Under the pieces are notes generated by a model that did not search any database, was not told the origin of the DNA, and was given only the letters and a program-made list of their open reading frames with translations. A program made the translations under genes and the position numbers. A stretch of DNA of 64,000 nucleotides, taken from positions 1 through 64,000 of the IMG/VR virus record IMGVR_UViG_3300025383_000015; one strand, given 5' to 3'. How positions within the stretch are numbered: the stretch's first letter is position 1; every line of letters begins with the position of its first letter. Below are positions 2,910-35,067 of this stretch, piece after piece. The DNA is from a virus.

Positions 2910-4037
2910 TTAGTTTGTGTAAACCTTGACGATAGCCTGATCGGTGATAACACCGAGGCCCCAGATTGCGTACCAAGCAAGAGCGTGCTCACGACCGAAG
3001 TCAAGAACGCCACCATCGCGAAGTTCAACTGGAAGAGCAATAGCGTGACCAAAAGCGTTGTCACCAATCATGATTGACTCGTAAACGCTTGCACTTGAGT
3101 TAACAGTGCTGTCTGATCCACCTGCTGGGTATGGTGAAGTTGAACCTTCTGGGTTACCACCTTGACCAGGAGCGGTGTTAGCCTTTACAGGGACATCGGT
3201 CTGGTATGAAGGAGCACCAACAGAAGAGGTGTAGTCAACAACTGATGAAGCAGCAAACTGCTTGACCTGTGTTGTTTCGATGAAGACTACGTCGTACAAA
3301 CGACCGATTTCACCGAGCATGAAGTTACCTGGAGCAGCGTACTTTGTAACTTCGATGAACTCTGGGTTCGAACGAATGTCACGAGACTGCTTTGGGTGGA
3401 TAAATTGAACGTAGGTCTCGCCCAAACGTGGGATGTTCTTGGAAGCGAGGGTAAGGGCAGCATCCTTAACAGCACCTGTAGACAACTTAAAGTTACCTGT
3501 TAGGTCTGAAATCTTTGTTCCCTTTGTACCTTCGTTGTACCAATCGTTTACACCTTGGAGGCTTGAACGGTCATAACCGAAGACAGCAGATGTCGCAGCA
3601 GAGAGTGTGTTGCGAGCCTGGATGTCAAGGTATTGAGCCATGTGGCGGCCAAGCAAACGTGATGCAGATGCCATGATGTCATCGAATGATGAGTTCAAGA
3701 GCAACTCAGAAACAGCAACGCCGTAACCTTGTTCTGCAACTGTGATTGCGATTTGCTCTGCTGTGAGAGCGTTTGTTGTCATACGAACACCTTCTGTAAG
3801 AGGTGTTGGATCAACAGCAAAGTTCTTGTAACGTAGGAAGTTAACGCGTAGACCAGGAGCAACTCCGAGTTCTGTCTTCTTAACAGCGAACTGTTCGAAG
3901 CGAAGAATTGGCATTGCCTGGAATAGGATTTCCTTCGACCAGATTGTTTGAATTGCTTGGTTCAGGCTTGAATTTGAGCCTGAGTAAGCGGTTGGAGCGC
4001 CCGCGAGTTGCGAGGAGCCTGTAATAGCACTTGCCAT
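2910..4037 (-). CDS. Major capsid protein
   Basis: 375 residues, with a typical length and the expected position directly after portal and scaffold genes. The sequence has features of HK97-like capsid proteins: an N-terminal helical segment (QTIWSKEILFQAMPILRF), a long alpha/beta core, and a C-terminal beta segment with VKVYTN at the end. The Ser/Thr/Gly/Pro-rich stretch around residues 270-310 may be a surface loop. The call rests on synteny and general character; no signature motif is decisive. A strong hairpin follows, as is common after highly expressed capsid genes. Confidence 0.75.
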   Translation of the reverse strand: MASAITGSSQLAGAPTAYSGSNSSLNQAIQTIWSKEILFQAMPILRFEQFAVKKTELGVAPGLRVNFLRYKNFAVDPTPLTEGVRMTTNALTAEQIAITVAEQGYGVAVSELLLNSSFDDIMASASRLLGRHMAQYLDIQARNTLSAATSAVFGYDRSSLQGVNDWYNEGTKGTKISDLTGNFKLSTGAVKDAALTLASKNIPRLGETYVQFIHPKQSRDIRSNPEFIEVTKYAAPGNFMLGEIGRLYDVVFIETTQVKQFAASSVVDYTSSVGAPSYQTDVPVKANTAPGQGGNPEGSTSPYPAGGSDSTVNSSASVYESIMIGDNAFGHAIALPVELRDGGVLDFGREHALAWYAIWGLGVITDQAIVKVYTN

Positions 4038-23457: not shown

Positions 23458-23504
23458 TGGATCAACCTATACCAACGGTATAGACCTAACAGTACGAAAC
23501 GCCG

Positions 23505-23575
23505 CTCCCAGGCCTGGACTCGAACCAAGATACTCGCCTCCAAAGGGCGATGTCCTACCATTAGACGACCTGGGA
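23505..23575 (-). tRNA. tRNA-Gln (anticodon UUG)
   Basis: A cloverleaf folds on the minus strand: acceptor TCCCAGG/CCTGGGA with discriminator G, D arm with GTCTAATGGTAGGAC, anticodon stem TCGCC/GGCGA around the loop CTTTGGA (U33, anticodon TTG, G37), and T arm with TTGGTTCGAGTCCAG. No CCA is encoded. G37 after UUG is the pattern in actinobacterial tRNA-Gln, so position 37 fits. Codon CAA is decoded, a codon used heavily in the collagen-like fibres. Confidence 0.92.
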
Positions 23576-24890: not shown

Positions 24891-25067
24891 AACCTGATTT
24901 TAGGGCTACTGCCTGCCTTTGTACCCCTCAACCATGTCTCTGCCCTGGGCCTCTCCCTCGTGCGATCGCGTTTAACCATGGGGGGTGGCAGGGGGTGGCG
25001 GTGTTACCAATTTGTACCTCATTACAAGTCATGTACATCGGTGTTAACACACGCGTGAATGCGTGCC

Positions 25068-25292
25068 TGCATGCCTGCTTGGTGACAATCTTGGTGACAC
25101 GATCACTCTGCAGGCTCGGCTACTGTCGCAGAATGTTGCATGCCTGCATCGGTACGACCAGACGATCAGGTGTGCCACCCCACTAATAACAGATACGTGC
25201 ATGCGTGCATCGTTGCATCGTTGTCGCGTTGCATGCATGTGCGAATACATCGGACAACTGCACATGCAATCAATCAATACAACTCTGCATGC
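25068..25292. repeat. TGCATGC/TGCATCG repeat cluster
   Basis: Nine TGCAT-type words in 225 bp: TGCATGC at 25068, 25137, 25198, 25230 (with an overlapping second) and 25286; TGCATC at 25145, 25206 and 25214, the last two as an 8-nt tandem. TGCATGC contains the palindrome GCATGC, so a dimeric protein could bind. Candidate origin iterons or operator sites for an unknown regulator. Confidence 0.55.
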
Positions 25293-25572: not shown

Positions 25573-25601
25573 TTGACCTTGTCCTATAAATACGGAATAG
25601 T
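25573..25601 (+). promoter_or_regulatory. Sigma-70-like promoter upstream of structured RNA
   Basis: TTGACC (25573-25578) and AATAGT (25596-25601) are separated by 17 nt. Predicted transcription start near 25608, six nt before the first helix of the structured RNA. This is the only good promoter-like match I see upstream of the rightward operon. Match to consensus is four of six bases at each box. Confidence 0.5.
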
Positions 25602-25607
25602 GCTCCT

Positions 25608-25945
25608 TGTACACACGCGGTAGCGATTAGATCAGGTCAGAATCCCCTAGGGGCACCGATCGAAATCAAAGCCAGAAGTGGTAAAGGGTACAGATACACA
25701 GCAGTTAGTCGGTGTAGTGGGCAACAGTCATTAAATCCCTAGGGAACTGACCCGCGTGACGAAAACCTGCGAGGGGTATCGAATTACATAGAGAACTCAG
25801 AACACAATTAGCGGGGCTGGTCATGGACTGCCACTCAGGTGCAGGCGGTAATCAATCCGACCGACAGAACAGTGACACCAGCCCCTACTAATTGCTCCCA
25901 GAACTGTCCATGACTCGATCGTGGGCGGTTCTGGTAGCAATCTGG
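25608..25945 (+). ncRNA. Candidate structured non-coding RNA / long structured leader
   Basis: Several helices fit. Domain 1: CACGCG 25614-25619 with CGCGTG 25753-25758; GGTCAG 25635-25640 with CTGACC 25747-25752; CCCTAGGG 25645-25652 with CCCTAGGG 25737-25744; CACCGA 25654-25659 with TCGGTG 25709-25714. The 3' strand 25737-25758 is almost fully paired. Domain 2: AATTAG/CTAATT plus GGGGCTGGT/ACCAGCCCC (806-821 with 877-893). Domain 3: ATTGCT-c-CCAGAAC with GTTCTGG-t-AGCAAT (25891-25941). Part of domain 2 (25820-25828) is exactly complementary to the domain 3 loop (25906-25914), a possible kissing contact. No protein gene, no match to tmRNA, RNase P or cobalamin riboswitch that I can make. Confidence 0.6.
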
Positions 25946-25973
25946 TGCTATCTCTACATGAAGGGCAAATCCA

Positions 25974-26102
25974 ATGACAAAGAAAAATAAATCATGCAGT
26001 CAACATGCAATCTGCGTTTCCTCCGATAGCAACTTGCCAGAGTGCAAGTGCTGGTGTGCAGAGTGCCGTCAATACTTCCGCAATCTTCGGAAGGGTGCGT
26101 AA
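25974..26102 (+). CDS. Cys-rich mini-protein (42 aa)
   Basis: 42 residues. CSQHAIC near the start and ECKCWCAECRQYFRNLRKG near the end give six Cys in two clusters. First gene after the structured RNA. Weak ribosome site (AGGGC). Zinc-binding likely. Coding potential is supported by the following gene starting 2 nt after its stop. Confidence 0.55.
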   Translation: MTKKNKSCSQHAICVSSDSNLPECKCWCAECRQYFRNLRKGA

Positions 26103-26104
26103 TC

Positions 26105-26356
26105 ATGACACCACGCAAACTCACATACGATAAGGCGCGAATCGCTCGCGAATTCGCTTGGCAACGCAATTCCTGCACAACACAAGTTGAAACCGATCTT
26201 CTTGACGTGATGATCGAACGCCTTGCATTCACAATCTTCGGCAGTCGATCACGTTTTCAACGCAACGAATTCCTACGAATCGCAAACTATAAGCGCGACT
26301 TCGACGGCAAATCTTTACTTGAGCAGTACGCATCATTAGTGCAAGGAGGCAACTAA
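26105..26356 (+). CDS. Unknown protein (83 aa)
   Basis: 83 residues from ATG 26105 (MTPRKLTYDKARIAREFAWQ), with GGAAGGG about 11 nt upstream. Charged and helical. Longer upstream starts overlap the previous gene in another frame. No family recognised. Confidence 0.6.
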   Translation: MTPRKLTYDKARIAREFAWQRNSCTTQVETDLLDVMIERLAFTIFGSRSRFQRNEFLRIANYKRDFDGKSLLEQYASLVQGGN

Positions 26357-27963: not shown

Positions 27964-28836
27964 ATGCACTCACTCAATCAATTAATTCCTTCAATAGCAT
28001 CACAAGATCACTACGTAGATCGATCATTCTGTGGAGTCACAGGTGTTCAGATCGCAGACTTCGCACTAAAGAATAAGATCAACATTCTCAATGCTGGTCA
28101 CGCTGGTACAGGTAAGACATCGTTCGCGCAGTACTACGCAAGCCAGAGAGGACTTCCCTATGTATCACTTCCGTCAAACTCAGCACTTAGTGCTAACGAA
28201 TTACAAGGCAACTGGGTCACACAGGACGGCAAACTCGAATGGGTCGACTCAATCTATGTCAAAGTATGGCGTGAAGGTGGAGTGCTCAATCTCGGTGAGG
28301 TTGATCAACTCGCAAAGAATGCTCAGTACTTTTTCCATGAAGGTACAGATCACCGCCGTACACTCACACTCACAGCACACGATTACGAAGTCGTACATGC
28401 TCACCCAGACCTGCTTATCATCGGTGACTGGAACCCAATGTACCGAGGTCGACAACCTCTCTCAGAGTCGTGGGCTGATCGCTTCCAATTAAAACTTCGT
28501 TACGAATACGATCGTGACATCGAAAGCAAGTTTATTCGATCAGGCTCTCTGCTTGATCTTGCATTCGGTATGCGATCACAATCTCGTGGCGTTGATCTAG
28601 GACAAGCAAGCAAGTCCACAGTATTCGAGACACCGATCACTCCACGCATTCTCAAAACGTTCGAATTAGTAGCACGTGAATTGAACTTCGATCTTGCGTG
28701 TGAAGTGTTCGCTAACAACTTCAATGATGAAGAACGACCAGCAGTAAAGATGCTCCTAGAGGGCGCATCATTCAATATCAAGGACGATCTAGGCATCGAT
28801 CAAGAGCAAGTAACACCAGAGTACGAGACAGTCTAA
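27964..28836 (+). CDS. MoxR/CobS-like AAA+ ATPase
   Basis: 290 residues. Walker A AGHAGTGKTSFA (residues ~45-56), a Walker B position written GGVLNLGEVDQ where the usual Asp is Gly, sensor 1 in IIGDWNPMYRG and an arginine-finger region in SESWADRFQLKL. Resembles AAA_5/MoxR and CobS-type ATPases. These use ATP hydrolysis to drive a VWA partner, which is the next gene. MoxR partners remodel or load metal or cofactor into enzymes; CobS is the cobaltochelatase partner. Paired with the gene at 28847. Biochemical target unknown; activity may be reduced by the changed Walker B. Confidence 0.8.
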   Translation: MHSLNQLIPSIASQDHYVDRSFCGVTGVQIADFALKNKINILNAGHAGTGKTSFAQYYASQRGLPYVSLPSNSALSANELQGNWVTQDGKLEWVDSIYVKVWREGGVLNLGEVDQLAKNAQYFFHEGTDHRRTLTLTAHDYEVVHAHPDLLIIGDWNPMYRGRQPLSESWADRFQLKLRYEYDRDIESKFIRSGSLLDLAFGMRSQSRGVDLGQASKSTVFETPITPRILKTFELVARELNFDLACEVFANNFNDEERPAVKMLLEGASFNIKDDLGIDQEQVTPEYETV

Positions 28837-28846
28837 GGAGCACGTC

Positions 28847-30796
28847 ATGAGCGAGATCAACATCACCGATCTAGGTAAGATCTTCGAAGAACTACAAGAG
28901 ATAAGTGAAGAGCAGAAAGAACTAGAGGCTAAACGCCAGCGTATCGAACGATTTACTGGATTCTTCTCTCGAGTTAACTCTGCCTTCTCATTTCGACCTG
29001 TAACAGTTAAGGTCGAGACTTCACCAGTCAAAGCACCAGCGTGGTCTGGGGCTAGTGAAGTGTTCTTCAATTCCAATGAGATCGGTGATCTTGATACGCC
29101 AGAGTCAATCGCTAGCATCAAGGGACTTGATCTTCATGAAGTAAGCCATATCCTTTACACCAGCCGTCAAGGTAGCGATCTCGTTGAGCGAGTGATCGAT
29201 AAGAGCATGTGGACTGCATTCAATGCGTTAGAAGATCAACGTATCGAGTCATTCTTCACTGCTAAGTATCCTTCAACTATCCCATGGTTCGTGTCTATGA
29301 TCTTGATTCACTTCAAGAACAACCCAGAAGTATTCGAGAACTCATACCCACTTCTCTGTGGTCGCAGATACTTGCCAGTCGAGATTCGTAAAGAGTCTCG
29401 TGCGCTATATCCGCATCAAGATAAGATCGATCAATTCAAAGCGATCATCAATGAATACCGCACCCTTGTATTCCCTACAGATACAGATCGTGGAGTCGAA
29501 TTAATCGAGCAGTACTACAACCTGCTACCAAAGAGCGAAGGTGGTAATGGTGAAGAGACTGGTAAGCCAAAGTACAAGGCAGTCAAAGATGACGGCACAG
29601 GTACAGGTACACCAATCAAAGTAATCGACCCATGTGGTCATGGTGCTCGACCAACAGAAGGTATCGAGTCATCAGTCAACTCTCGCCCAGTCCCACCACG
29701 TCAGCAGGAGAAGGAGCGCGATCGTCTTAATAGCCAATCAAAAGATATCGATGATGATCTACCAGAGATTAATGCAGAAGATATTGATTGGTCGGAATTC
29801 AATGGTCAAGATCAAGAGCCTAGTGATCAAAAGTCTGATGATGAGATCACCGACTCTGAAAGTGGAGATGCTCAAGAGCCAAGCGATAACGTGAACTCTG
29901 GAGAAGGTGCTGGCAATACTGCTGGTGAATTAATCGAGACAATCCTCGGTGAGATTCTTAGCCAGTCTGGTATTGCTCAAGAGATCAACGACATGCTACG
30001 AGTGATCAATGGCAAGCCACTTCTGGATTCGAATAACGAAAGCGAACCAATACGTGCTAACTGGAAGGAGTTAGTCCCAGACAACGTGACAGTAGAAGCC
30101 TCTCGATCATTCGGTCGTGAACTTGAACGCTTGCGTGCATCATTCGAACCTGCTTGGGATACCTACGAGAACTCAGGTCGACTCAGTATCGGTCGTTACG
30201 TTAGGGGCGATGACTTCGACACTATCTTCGATCAATGGAACGAAGGTCGTGAAGATGCTACAGATATCGAGTGCGTAATTGTGCTTGATAACTCTGGCTC
30301 AATGAGTGGACAGAAGATCGCAAACGCCAATCGTGCGATGTATGCGATCAAGCGTGCACTCGATCGTATCGATGCAAGCACAACAGTAGTCACGTTCTCT
30401 GACGAAGCACGCCTTCTCTACCATGCAACTGAGAAGTCGAATTCATTCATCAGAGATGCGTTCAGCAACGGCGGTACAGAACCAGATCAAGCGATCAGGT
30501 ATGCAACCAAGGTTCTTGCTGAAAGTAATCGCAAGATCAAGATCTTCTTCGCGATCACTGACGGAGTGTGGTACGGCGATCAAGACACTAACAATGAAGC
30601 GATCGAACGTATGGCTCGCTCTGGTGTGCTGACTGCCTTTGCCTACATTCCAGAGGGCAACGAAGAGATAGAACTGACTGCAAATAAAGCACACAAGTGT
30701 GAGATCGGTGCAGTAGTACGTAATCCATTCGACCTAATTACCATGGCACGAGCGATCGTTAAGTACGCGATCTCTCGCAGACTAACTAACGCATAA
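28847..30796 (+). CDS. VWA-domain protein with zincin-like HEVSH motif (CobT-like)
   Basis: 649 residues. An N-terminal part (about residues 85-140) has LDLHEVSHILYTSRQGSD followed about 25 residues later by NALEDQRIESFF: HExxH plus a downstream Glu, the pattern of putative metallopeptidase/CobT-type proteins. The middle (200-370) is a very acidic, Ser/Gly/Asp-rich region (DIDDDLPEINAEDIDWSEF). A C-terminal VWA domain carries the MIDAS in IVLDNSGSMSGQKI, the Thr in NGGTEPDQAI and Asp in FAITDGVW. It sits 10 nt after its ATPase partner. Same layout as CobT/MoxR-associated proteins, but combined metallopeptidase and VWA is notable in a phage. Confidence 0.8.
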   Translation: MSEINITDLGKIFEELQEISEEQKELEAKRQRIERFTGFFSRVNSAFSFRPVTVKVETSPVKAPAWSGASEVFFNSNEIGDLDTPESIASIKGLDLHEVSHILYTSRQGSDLVERVIDKSMWTAFNALEDQRIESFFTAKYPSTIPWFVSMILIHFKNNPEVFENSYPLLCGRRYLPVEIRKESRALYPHQDKIDQFKAIINEYRTLVFPTDTDRGVELIEQYYNLLPKSEGGNGEETGKPKYKAVKDDGTGTGTPIKVIDPCGHGARPTEGIESSVNSRPVPPRQQEKERDRLNSQSKDIDDDLPEINAEDIDWSEFNGQDQEPSDQKSDDEITDSESGDAQEPSDNVNSGEGAGNTAGELIETILGEILSQSGIAQEINDMLRVINGKPLLDSNNESEPIRANWKELVPDNVTVEASRSFGRELERLRASFEPAWDTYENSGRLSIGRYVRGDDFDTIFDQWNEGREDATDIECVIVLDNSGSMSGQKIANANRAMYAIKRALDRIDASTTVVTFSDEARLLYHATEKSNSFIRDAFSNGGTEPDQAIRYATKVLAESNRKIKIFFAITDGVWYGDQDTNNEAIERMARSGVLTAFAYIPEGNEEIELTANKAHKCEIGAVVRNPFDLITMARAIVKYAISRRLTNA

Positions 30797-33689: not shown

Positions 33690-33741
33690 CTAACTTCTGG
33701 GTTCTCTATGTATCTCGATACCCAGACTTTGACTATCGATC

Positions 33742-33768
33742 TACTGGTGGGTAATGTACTGACCAGTA
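33742..33768 (+). other. Inverted repeat upstream of integrase
   Basis: TACTGGT and ACCAGTA form a 7-bp inverted repeat around 13 nt, in the 94-nt gap before the integrase. It could be an integrase/excisionase binding site (attP neighbourhood) or an operator. No tRNA 3' fragment that would mark attP was found here. Confidence 0.35.
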
Positions 33769-33789
33769 ACAGGCTACGAGGAGGTGGCT

Positions 33790-35067
33790 ATGGCTTATGT
33801 AGTGCAACGCGGTAAGCGATTTACCGCCTATTATCGTCTCAACGGCAAACGCCTCTCGGCTGGCACATGGGATTCCTATGCCAAGGCTGAGGCTTCGGCT
33901 ATGAAGGCTGAGGTTCTGGGCTTCTCAGAGCCTTCTGGGGCTGATTCCAGCCTTGCCACATACTTCACCAAGTGGCTCAAGACGGCTGATCTTATGCCGA
34001 TCACCAAGAAGCACTATGAATTAACTTTTCGAACATACGTTCTAAATCGCCTAGGCTCTCATGAAGTAACTTCCATTTCGGCCAAACAGATTCGAAAGTT
34101 ACTTAGTGATCTTAGACTCGAGGGCGTTAAGCCTGCCACGCTGGGACAGATCAAAGCATGCCTAGGGTCAGCCTTCGCCTCTCTCGTGGAGAATGAGGAG
34201 ATAGCGGTCAATCCCACCCATGGCATCAAGGTCAAGGTCAACCAGCCAGACCTGCACAATGTCCTAGAGCCTGCCGAATTCAAGAAGATACTAAGTAACT
34301 TACCTGGCGGAACCGGTTCCGGTGCAAAGTTACTTGCCAAGATGCTCGTTCTTTCTGGTGCTCGCTTTGGTGAGGCTACAGAACTCAGGGTAAAAGACTT
34401 CAATTTTAACTCTGGCGAGGTATTTATCCAGAGACGCGTGAGTGAATTGGGCGCAACCTACAACTCTGGCGAGAGATTCAAGGTTATAGATGCCACCAAG
34501 TCGGGCAGAAAACGCTCAATAACACTCTCAAAAGCCCTATTACATGAGATTAAAGCGTATGTCCTAGCAAAAGACCTACAAAAAGATGACCTACTCTTCC
34601 CAAGGAGCATCGTGTTAACGGCAGGTAAACTAGAACCTTCACGCGAGATCGATACTTCGCAGCCATACGCTGCGGGGGGAAAACGCTTCAAGCATGGAAC
34701 GCTATACTCCTACACCCATGGTGGCTGTAGATGCCAAGCCTGCAGGGAGGCAGTGCGAAAGCACCGCCAAGCCAAGGCAAGGTCAAAGGTAAAGCAGACC
34801 ATGACCAACGATAAGAGCCACTTACCGCGTGGAGTCTGGAGAACTACATGGAACCAAGCAATAGCCAAGTCAGGAATTGGCTGGACTCCTAGAACCCATG
34901 ACCTCCGTCATGCCAACGCCACCCTGTTGTTAAAGAACGGGGTAGACGTACATGAGGTCAAGGAACGTCTAGGTCACCAGTCAATTAAAACAACGGAGAG
35001 GTATTTACACCGCCTCCGTCACCAGCAGTCAACGGCAGGAGAACTCGCCAATGACTTTATGGAGTGA
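33790..35067 (+). CDS. Tyrosine integrase with inserted GCRC-motif domain
   Basis: 425 residues from ATG 33790, five nt after AGGAGG. An N-terminal arm-binding domain (KRFTAYYRLNGKRLSAGTWD), SAM-like domain, then a catalytic domain with Arg in SGARFGEATELR, HxxR in THDLRHANATLLLK and Tyr in SIKTTERYLHRL. The insert FKHGTLYSYTHGGCRCQACR occupies roughly residues 298-320 between catalytic motifs. This short HGT...GCRCxxCR pattern recurs in actinobacterial proteins. Integrates the genome into a host site; the att core is not identified. Confidence 0.9.
   Translation: MAYVVQRGKRFTAYYRLNGKRLSAGTWDSYAKAEASAMKAEVLGFSEPSGADSSLATYFTKWLKTADLMPITKKHYELTFRTYVLNRLGSHEVTSISAKQIRKLLSDLRLEGVKPATLGQIKACLGSAFASLVENEEIAVNPTHGIKVKVNQPDLHNVLEPAEFKKILSNLPGGTGSGAKLLAKMLVLSGARFGEATELRVKDFNFNSGEVFIQRRVSELGATYNSGERFKVIDATKSGRKRSITLSKALLHEIKAYVLAKDLQKDDLLFPRSIVLTAGKLEPSREIDTSQPYAAGGKRFKHGTLYSYTHGGCRCQACREAVRKHRQAKARSKVKQTMTNDKSHLPRGVWRTTWNQAIAKSGIGWTPRTHDLRHANATLLLKNGVDVHEVKERLGHQSIKTTERYLHRLRHQQSTAGELANDFME

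What the first reader, a model, noticed from the sequence alone, without database searches (positions are those of the whole stretch)
25608..25945. Candidate new structured RNA of about 340 nt with a loop-loop contact
Seen: seven helices, including GC-rich and mutually supporting ones, in a gene-free stretch directly after a promoter-like site. The 3' strand 25737-25758 pairs successively with three separate upstream segments, and 25820-25828 is exactly complementary to 25906-25914 in the loop of the next hairpin. Inference: a functional ncRNA or structured leader of the rightward operon. I can exclude obvious tmRNA, RNase P and cobalamin riboswitch signatures by eye only.
Basis: partly seen in the sequence, partly recalled or inferred. 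Interest (0 to 1): 0.85.

Follow-up and report, generated by a model that had tools for sequence, protein, structure and literature searches.

The report
Phage RNA matching site beside integrase
A family of freshwater phages carries a large folded RNA, absent from the RNA catalogues, that contains a stretch (in some phages two or three separate stretches) complementary to a short site about 8-10 kb away beside the phage's integrase gene; RNA and site have changed together through evolution, which points to a new kind of built-in guide or antisense RNA.

Summary
It is the leader of the rightward operon (about 25602-25973, before a 42-aa ORF), not in Rfam. Sixteen integrase-bearing phage loci (window included; integrases 55-100% identical) carry it 8-10 kb upstream of a tyrosine integrase. 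Its core is supported by compensatory change: 13 of 16 pairs change on both sides, covariation 0.76 versus 0.26 shuffled. Segment 25774-25802 is the reverse complement of 33695-33723, between the stop codon of the last operon gene and the integrase. This complementarity recurs in seven classes of site with different sequences. In five the RNA's match is split into two or three pieces around RNA domains, together covering a contiguous 34-37 nt site. Every leader matches its own class best. In most lineages the site sits 1-15 nt before an intrinsic terminator. Relatives that lack the core also lack the site, while keeping an 89% identical integrase. Best reading: a guide/antisense leader that pairs with the 3' end of its own operon, at the terminator guarding integrase; RNA-level pairing and its effect are inferred. 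A guide acting on attP DNA is not excluded. The claimed 25820-25828/25906-25914 contact is not conserved.

The parts
25573..25601 (+). promoter-like site of the leader transcript (TTGACC-17-AATAGT)
   Evidence: about one such site is expected by chance, but the surrounding DNA is well conserved in L008/L006
25635..25657 (+). twin hairpin 1: GGU-[CAGAAU]-CCCCUAGGGG-[C]-ACC, asymmetric internal loop
   Evidence: same motif with different compensating outer stems in L008, L006, L049, L057, L083
25725..25749 (+). twin hairpin 2: CAGU-[CAUUAAAU]-CCCUAGGG-[A]-ACUG
   Evidence: outer stem compensates in L008, L006, L016, L045, L049, L057, L086
25774..25802 (+). guide: reverse complement of the site 33695-33723 (29 nt, 26 identical)
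   Evidence: conserved complementarity in seven site classes
25813..25885 (+). core: P_a 25813-25820/25878-25885, P_b 25827-25830/25870-25873, P_c 25831-25839, conserved strand UGCMGRCRGUANYCAAUCYGAYC
   Evidence: alignment A5, pair counts; model R2 finds it in every locus that holds the leader; single copy in the 100-kb record
25898..25934 (+). 16-bp hairpin of the 3' part
   Evidence: one double and three single-sided pair-preserving changes, three pairs broken in some rows
25935..25973 (+). conserved leader 3' end with small hairpin UAGCA/UGCUA (from 25935) and ribosome-binding region AAGGGC
   Evidence: nearly invariant in L008, L006, L016
25974..26102 (+). first ORF of the operon, 42 aa, Cys-rich; replaced by unrelated ORFs behind the same leader in relatives
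33695..33723 (+). site complementary to the guide, just after the stop codon of the last operon gene; can itself form hairpin TCTGGGT/ACCCAGA
33729..33757 (+). integrase promoter-like TTGACT-17-TAATGT downstream of the site (by eye; below the scan's threshold)
   Evidence: sequence; TTGACT-17-TAAGGT at the same place in L016, L017, L020; not reported by the scan
33784..35067 (+). tyrosine integrase with intact R..HxxR..Y and a Cys-rich (GCRCxxC) insertion in the catalytic domain
   Evidence: PF00589 E 6e-24; alignments

Best explanation
The element is the structured 5' leader RNA (about 370 nt in the window, up to about 600 nt in relatives) of a long rightward phage operon. SHOWN: a conserved, covarying RNA core and two twin hairpins; a guide (one piece in the window, two or three pieces around bulging RNA domains in relatives) complementary to a 27-37 nt site at the far end of the operon, usually directly before the intrinsic terminator that separates the operon from the integrase gene; co-evolution and co-absence of core and site. 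INFERRED: the guide acts by base pairing with the operon's own 3'-end RNA, in cis through the tethered transcript or in trans as a processed leader RNA. Pairing beside the terminator would set how much transcription stops there or reads on into the integrase, or fix the mRNA's 3' end. It thus works like an antisense/attenuator pair such as CopA-CopT, or the P4 and P1 c4 immunity RNAs, but with a multi-part guide and a partner 8-10 kb away in the same transcription unit. The twin hairpins at the start of the transcript would suit a cis-acting anchoring or antitermination (put-like) role.
For: Covariation of the core: 91.6% of cells paired vs 66.1% shuffled, 13 of 16 pairs changed on both sides, score 0.760 vs 0.263, 0 of 500 shuffles. 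Guide-site complementarity in seven site classes, each leader best with its own class; 8 of 11 leaders beat all 300 Markov nulls, L045 and L090 were equalled or beaten once, L081 alone is weak (15 of 300). Split guides: L006 (20+17 nt), L053 (22+13), L045 (14+13), L093 (18+17), L090 (13+9+14), each covering a contiguous site. Duplex energies within the W clade: cognate classes -39 to -55, non-cognate -13 to -29 kcal/mol. L006/L017 and L028/L038 are 94-98% identical over most of the operon but differ in guide and site together. The site ends 1-7 nt before a terminator stem in L017, L053, L090, L057 and L020 and starts within about 10 nt of the stop codon in W, L016, L017 and L020. Core and site are both absent in L086/L092 although the integrase is 89% identical to L057/L081. 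Integrases of L021 and L020 differ at 4 of 422 residues but have unrelated sites, which argues against the site being a protein-read att core.
Against: No transcript data. Whether the leader and the site lie in one transcript is unknown. W and L016 have no separate strong terminator after the site. Guide pieces are not consistently unpaired in predicted folds (L090 and L093 last pieces are mostly paired). Mismatches (A-C, U-U) sit inside some duplexes. The same data would fit an RNA acting on the site as DNA. The site's place next to int, between repeated motifs, is also what an attP would look like.
Confidence: 0.5

Rival explanations
1. The site is the attP core and the RNA is a guide or regulator that pairs with attP (and perhaps attB) DNA during integration or excision; in the strong form the RNA, not the protein, sets the att specificity of the tyrosine integrase (bridge-RNA logic).
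For: The site is next to int in all classes; a CYATGTR-like motif recurs in most classes; repeats flank it (AGTTACT/AACTAACTT on one side, TACTSRCSAGTA on the other); nearly identical integrases occur with unrelated sites that follow the RNA; two- and three-part guides cover the whole site.
Against: L086/L092 keep the integrase but lack site and core. No attB match was found: the one genome-contig scan gave a single chance hit inside a coding gene. The integrase looks like an ordinary tyrosine recombinase. No integrated copy was seen.
Confidence: 0.25
2. The leader and int-proximal copies are two DNA recombination sites in inverted orientation, and the integrase flips the 8-kb segment.
For: The two copies are inverted repeats flanking the operon, beside a site-specific recombinase.
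Against: No inverted junction was seen among the contigs that hold the sites. In L006, L053, L045, L090 and L093 the leader copy is split by 100-340 nt, which a recombination site would not tolerate. The central positions differ between copies in W. It does not explain the covarying RNA core.
Confidence: 0.05
3. The guide's real target is a host RNA or gene, and the int-proximal site is a sponge or a carried-along copy of that target (for example a host gene 3' end used as attB).
For: The guide is identical in W, L016 and L028 although their sites vary, suggesting constraint beyond the site; site plus terminator could be the 3' end of a host gene, as in many attP sites (own knowledge).
Against: No host gene with the sequence was found in the one exact-pattern scan of 84,980 species genomes. 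In L006/L017 guide and site changed together.
Confidence: 0.12

Closest known systems
Antisense RNA pairs of plasmids and phages (CopA-CopT of R1, P4 CI RNA, P1/P7 c4 RNA; from own knowledge)
   Same: A short structured phage or plasmid RNA, in P4 and P1 from the leader of the regulated operon, pairs with a complementary segment near a termination or translation control point.
   Different: Here the partner is 8-10 kb away at the operon's 3' end by the integrase; the guide is split into up to three parts around folded domains; there is a large conserved core with no Rfam match.
IS110/IS1111 bridge RNA (seekRNA), PMC11187229
   Same: A structured noncoding RNA of a mobile element whose guide matches a site at the element's own recombinase locus and varies with it.
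   Different: The recombinase is a tyrosine integrase (PF00589), not a DEDD transposase; no second guide for a target was shown; DNA targeting is not shown.
put RNA of phage HK022 (processive antitermination; from own knowledge)
   Same: Two hairpins with conserved internal loops near the 5' end of an early phage transcript.
   Different: Different sequence and size; antitermination is not tested.
Large ornate phage-associated RNAs such as GOLLD and ROOL (from own knowledge; represented in Rfam)
   Same: Large structured noncoding RNAs found in environmental phage sequences.
   Different: No Rfam match; no guide complementary to an integrase-linked site is known to me for those.

Membership tests
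Any Rfam 15 family | score above the family's gathering threshold | tested here: not met
   (only a tRNA elsewhere in the window); one search shows chance-level matches only
tmRNA | tRNA-like domain and tag reading frame | tested here: not met
   ARAGORN: one tRNA-Gln at 23504-23575, no tmRNA
IS110/IS1111 bridge RNA system | DEDD-type transposase gene beside the RNA | tested here: not met
   the linked recombinase is a PF00589 tyrosine integrase, and it lies 8 kb away
IS110/IS1111 bridge RNA system | guides complementary to both donor and target DNA | tested here: inconclusive
   one site (donor side, next to int) is matched in seven classes; no target/attB was found
Antisense/attenuation regulatory RNA | conserved complementarity to a transcribed control region | tested here: inconclusive
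   complementarity is conserved and the site lies at a terminator; transcription of the site was not measured
Antisense/attenuation regulatory RNA | effect of pairing on termination, stability or translation | not testable with these tools
   needs an experiment
Tyrosine integrase attP core | crossover with attB at this sequence | not testable with these tools
   no lysogen or host sequence available; the site is absent in L086/L092, which keep int
Structured RNA (as opposed to chance folding) | compensatory base-pair changes | tested here: met
   13 of 16 pairs changed on both sides; slid controls 1-8 pairs

The most novel reading that the evidence does not exclude
The RNA is a multi-part guide that directs a tyrosine integrase to, or at, its att site DNA: an RNA-guided tyrosine recombinase in temperate freshwater phages, in which att specificity changes by changing the RNA and site while the protein stays the same.
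Probability: 0.12. Interest if true: 0.97.

Novelty: categorically new. Interest (0 to 1): 0.85.

Why it matters
Even in the conservative reading this is an RNA class absent from Rfam, shared by many freshwater phages, with a programmable-looking, split, covarying match to a fixed site 8-10 kb away. That is a long-range guide or antisense relation tied to the lysogeny gene of phages. If it controls the terminator before int, it is a new way for a phage to couple early transcription to integration. If it acts on attP DNA, it would to my knowledge be the first RNA-guided tyrosine recombinase. Both readings give sharp, directly testable predictions: for every new phage, the leader predicts the site.

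Tried and rejected
Rfam at gathering and relaxed thresholds and tmRNA/tRNA detection: nothing. Similar DNA in cultured phages or plasmids: nothing convincing (the short Listeria, Erwinia and other matches have E of 0.07 or worse). Nearest cultured relative of the phage, Streptomyces phage BRock (capsid about 60% identical): model R2 does not find the RNA in it (L041-L043). Operon protein 26042-26356 as bait: no relatives. DNA inversion by int: no inverted junction seen, and split leader copies argue against it. Excess of G-U over A-C differences in the duplexes: counted by hand (about 9 vs 5), too few and biased by the search, not used. Guide accessibility in single-sequence folds: mixed, no support either way. 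Papers: no report of an RNA-guided tyrosine integrase or of this RNA was found in the held library.

Full report
WHAT WAS CHECKED. The window is part of a 100,324-base uncultured virus record. The phage is temperate-looking: large terminase, portal, capsid about 60% identical to Streptomyces phages BRock/LuckySocke, tyrosine integrase, so an actinobacterial host is likely but not shown. The stretch 25608-25945 folds significantly better than shuffled sequence on the + strand (z -3.43), holds no ORF of 60 aa, and matches no Rfam family.

COMPARATIVE STRUCTURE. Close relatives (L008/L028, L006/L017, L016) keep the leader right up to the start codon at 25974, after which the first gene differs between phages. 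Distant relatives were reached through the integrase: 69 loci at 49-100% identity. A conserved core (window 25813-25885) was found 8-10 kb upstream of int: helix P_a, AUGG, helix P_b (AYUG/CARU), hairpin P_c, then UGCMGRCRGUANYCAAUCYGAYC and a 3' strand. On alignment A5 (11 sequences, 10 distinct) 91.6% of pair cells are standard, 13 of 16 pairs have changes on both sides, and the covariation score is 0.760 against 0.263 for shuffles (0 of 500 as high); partners slid by 1-3 columns give 0.04-0.28. These sequences are related, so the shuffle count is not a probability, but the slid controls and the number of double changes are hard to explain without structure. A covariance model (R2) finds the core in the window and every int locus that holds the leader at E 7e-15 or better, and once in the record of this phage. 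Upstream of it, two twin hairpins with asymmetric internal loops (CAGAAU..C and CAUUAAAU..A) keep their form while outer stems change on both sides.

The contact 25820-25828/25906-25914 is not conserved: the second strand is unrelated in L008, L016 and L006, where it keeps pairing within the 25898-25934 hairpin apart from a few broken pairs. The successive pairing of 25737-25758 is replaced by a local hairpin.

THE GUIDE AND ITS SITE. Segment 25774-25802 is the reverse complement (26 of 29) of 33695-33723, which lies just after the stop codon of the last operon gene and about 60 nt before the integrase gene. The same relation holds in seven classes of site whose sequences differ: {W, L016, L028+L038}, L006/L017, L045, L053, {L049, L057 and siblings}, {L090, L081} and L093. 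Each leader scores best against its own class; 8 of 11 leaders exceed all 300 Markov-resampled leaders, L045 and L090 were equalled or beaten once, and L081 alone would not be convincing (15 of 300). L028 and L038 are taken as one phage (1,798 bp overlap, 100% identical). In L006, L053, L045, L093 and L090 the guide comes in two or three pieces, separated in the leader by 100-340 nt of other RNA domains or by the core, yet together covering a contiguous 34-37 nt site; L006 gives 18 and 17 nt of perfect complementarity. Close relatives L006/L017 and L028/L038 differ in guide and site together, including what aligns as a 2-nt insertion in each.

CO-ABSENCE. L086 and L092 (99% identical to each other) keep the twin hairpins and the 3' end of the leader but lack the core, and at the int end have about 12 nt where L057 has about 45 nt with the site; their integrase is 89% identical to that of L057 and L081. 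The 74.8- and 94.5-kb records behind L095 and L096 also lack both. These virus records may be incomplete. The other int loci with enough upstream sequence have both.

WHERE THE SITE SITS. The site ends 1-7 nt before the stem of a terminator-like hairpin in L017, L053, L090, L057 and L020 (by eye also in L049, L045 and L081, and about 15 nt off in L093, where the scan found none); W and L016 lack a separate terminator. An int promoter-like TTGACT-17-TAAKGT follows by eye in the W clade (the scan did not list it in W). So the site is, by position, the 3' end of the operon that begins with the leader.

HOW IT MOST LIKELY WORKS. Best-supported reading: the leader RNA pairs, in cis or in trans, with the 3'-end segment of its own operon, next to the terminator that insulates int, and thereby controls termination, read-through into int, or mRNA 3'-end fate. 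Shown are structure, complementarity, co-evolution, co-absence and position; inferred are transcription of the site, pairing as RNA, and the effect. Main rival: the site is the attP core, and the RNA acts on attP DNA. For it: adjacency to int, flanking repeats and a recurrent CYATGTR motif. Against it: int persists without the site in L086, and near-identical integrases go with unrelated sites (L021 vs L020, 4 of 422 residues). The second observation would, however, be expected if the RNA rather than the protein set the specificity, which is the novel case.

KNOWN SYSTEMS. It works most like antisense leader RNAs (P4 CI, c4, CopA-CopT; own knowledge) and shows a formal likeness to bridge/seek RNAs (PMC11187229, abstract), but it fails the defining DEDD-recombinase feature of the latter. 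It matches no Rfam family. No paper describing it was found in the held library, which is not complete.

LIMITS. No expression data, no host genome, no lysogen. Structure counts rest on 10 distinct core sequences, of which four belong to the window's own clade.

Noticed in passing
33740-33780 and the same place in most int loci: Two to four copies of a 12-mer TACTSRCSAGTA between the terminator and the integrase start; could be operators or integrase arm-type sites. They persist in L086 without the site.
   Followed up: no
L049:9765-9854; also L056, L061, L081: Inverted repeats AACTAACTT...AAGTTAGTT (about 34 nt) upstream of int and again thousands of bases away in the same phages.
   Followed up: no
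25060-25240: Five copies of a 15-mer like TGCATGCCTGCATCG and other short repeats in the divergent intergenic region; may be an origin or regulatory region. By gene order the matching place in BRock is the genome end.
   Followed up: no
33784-35067: The integrase catalytic domain holds an insertion HGTLYxYTHGGCRCxxC, conserved in all relatives including those without the RNA.
   Followed up: partly
25974-26102 and L008:3765, L006:2792: Unrelated small first genes sit behind the same conserved leader and ribosome-binding region; in L006 a copy of the leader end (GAAAGGCAAATCCAATG) recurs at 3159-3198, further down the operon.
   Followed up: no
L006:2419-2606, L053:677-836, L045:152-279: An extra domain X between guide pieces, ending in GATCTACGA-like sequence in all three; looks homologous but was not modelled.
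   Followed up: no
27964-30796: ATPase plus VWA/CobT-like pair in the operon; the VWA protein has distant relatives in Gordonia phages.
   Followed up: no
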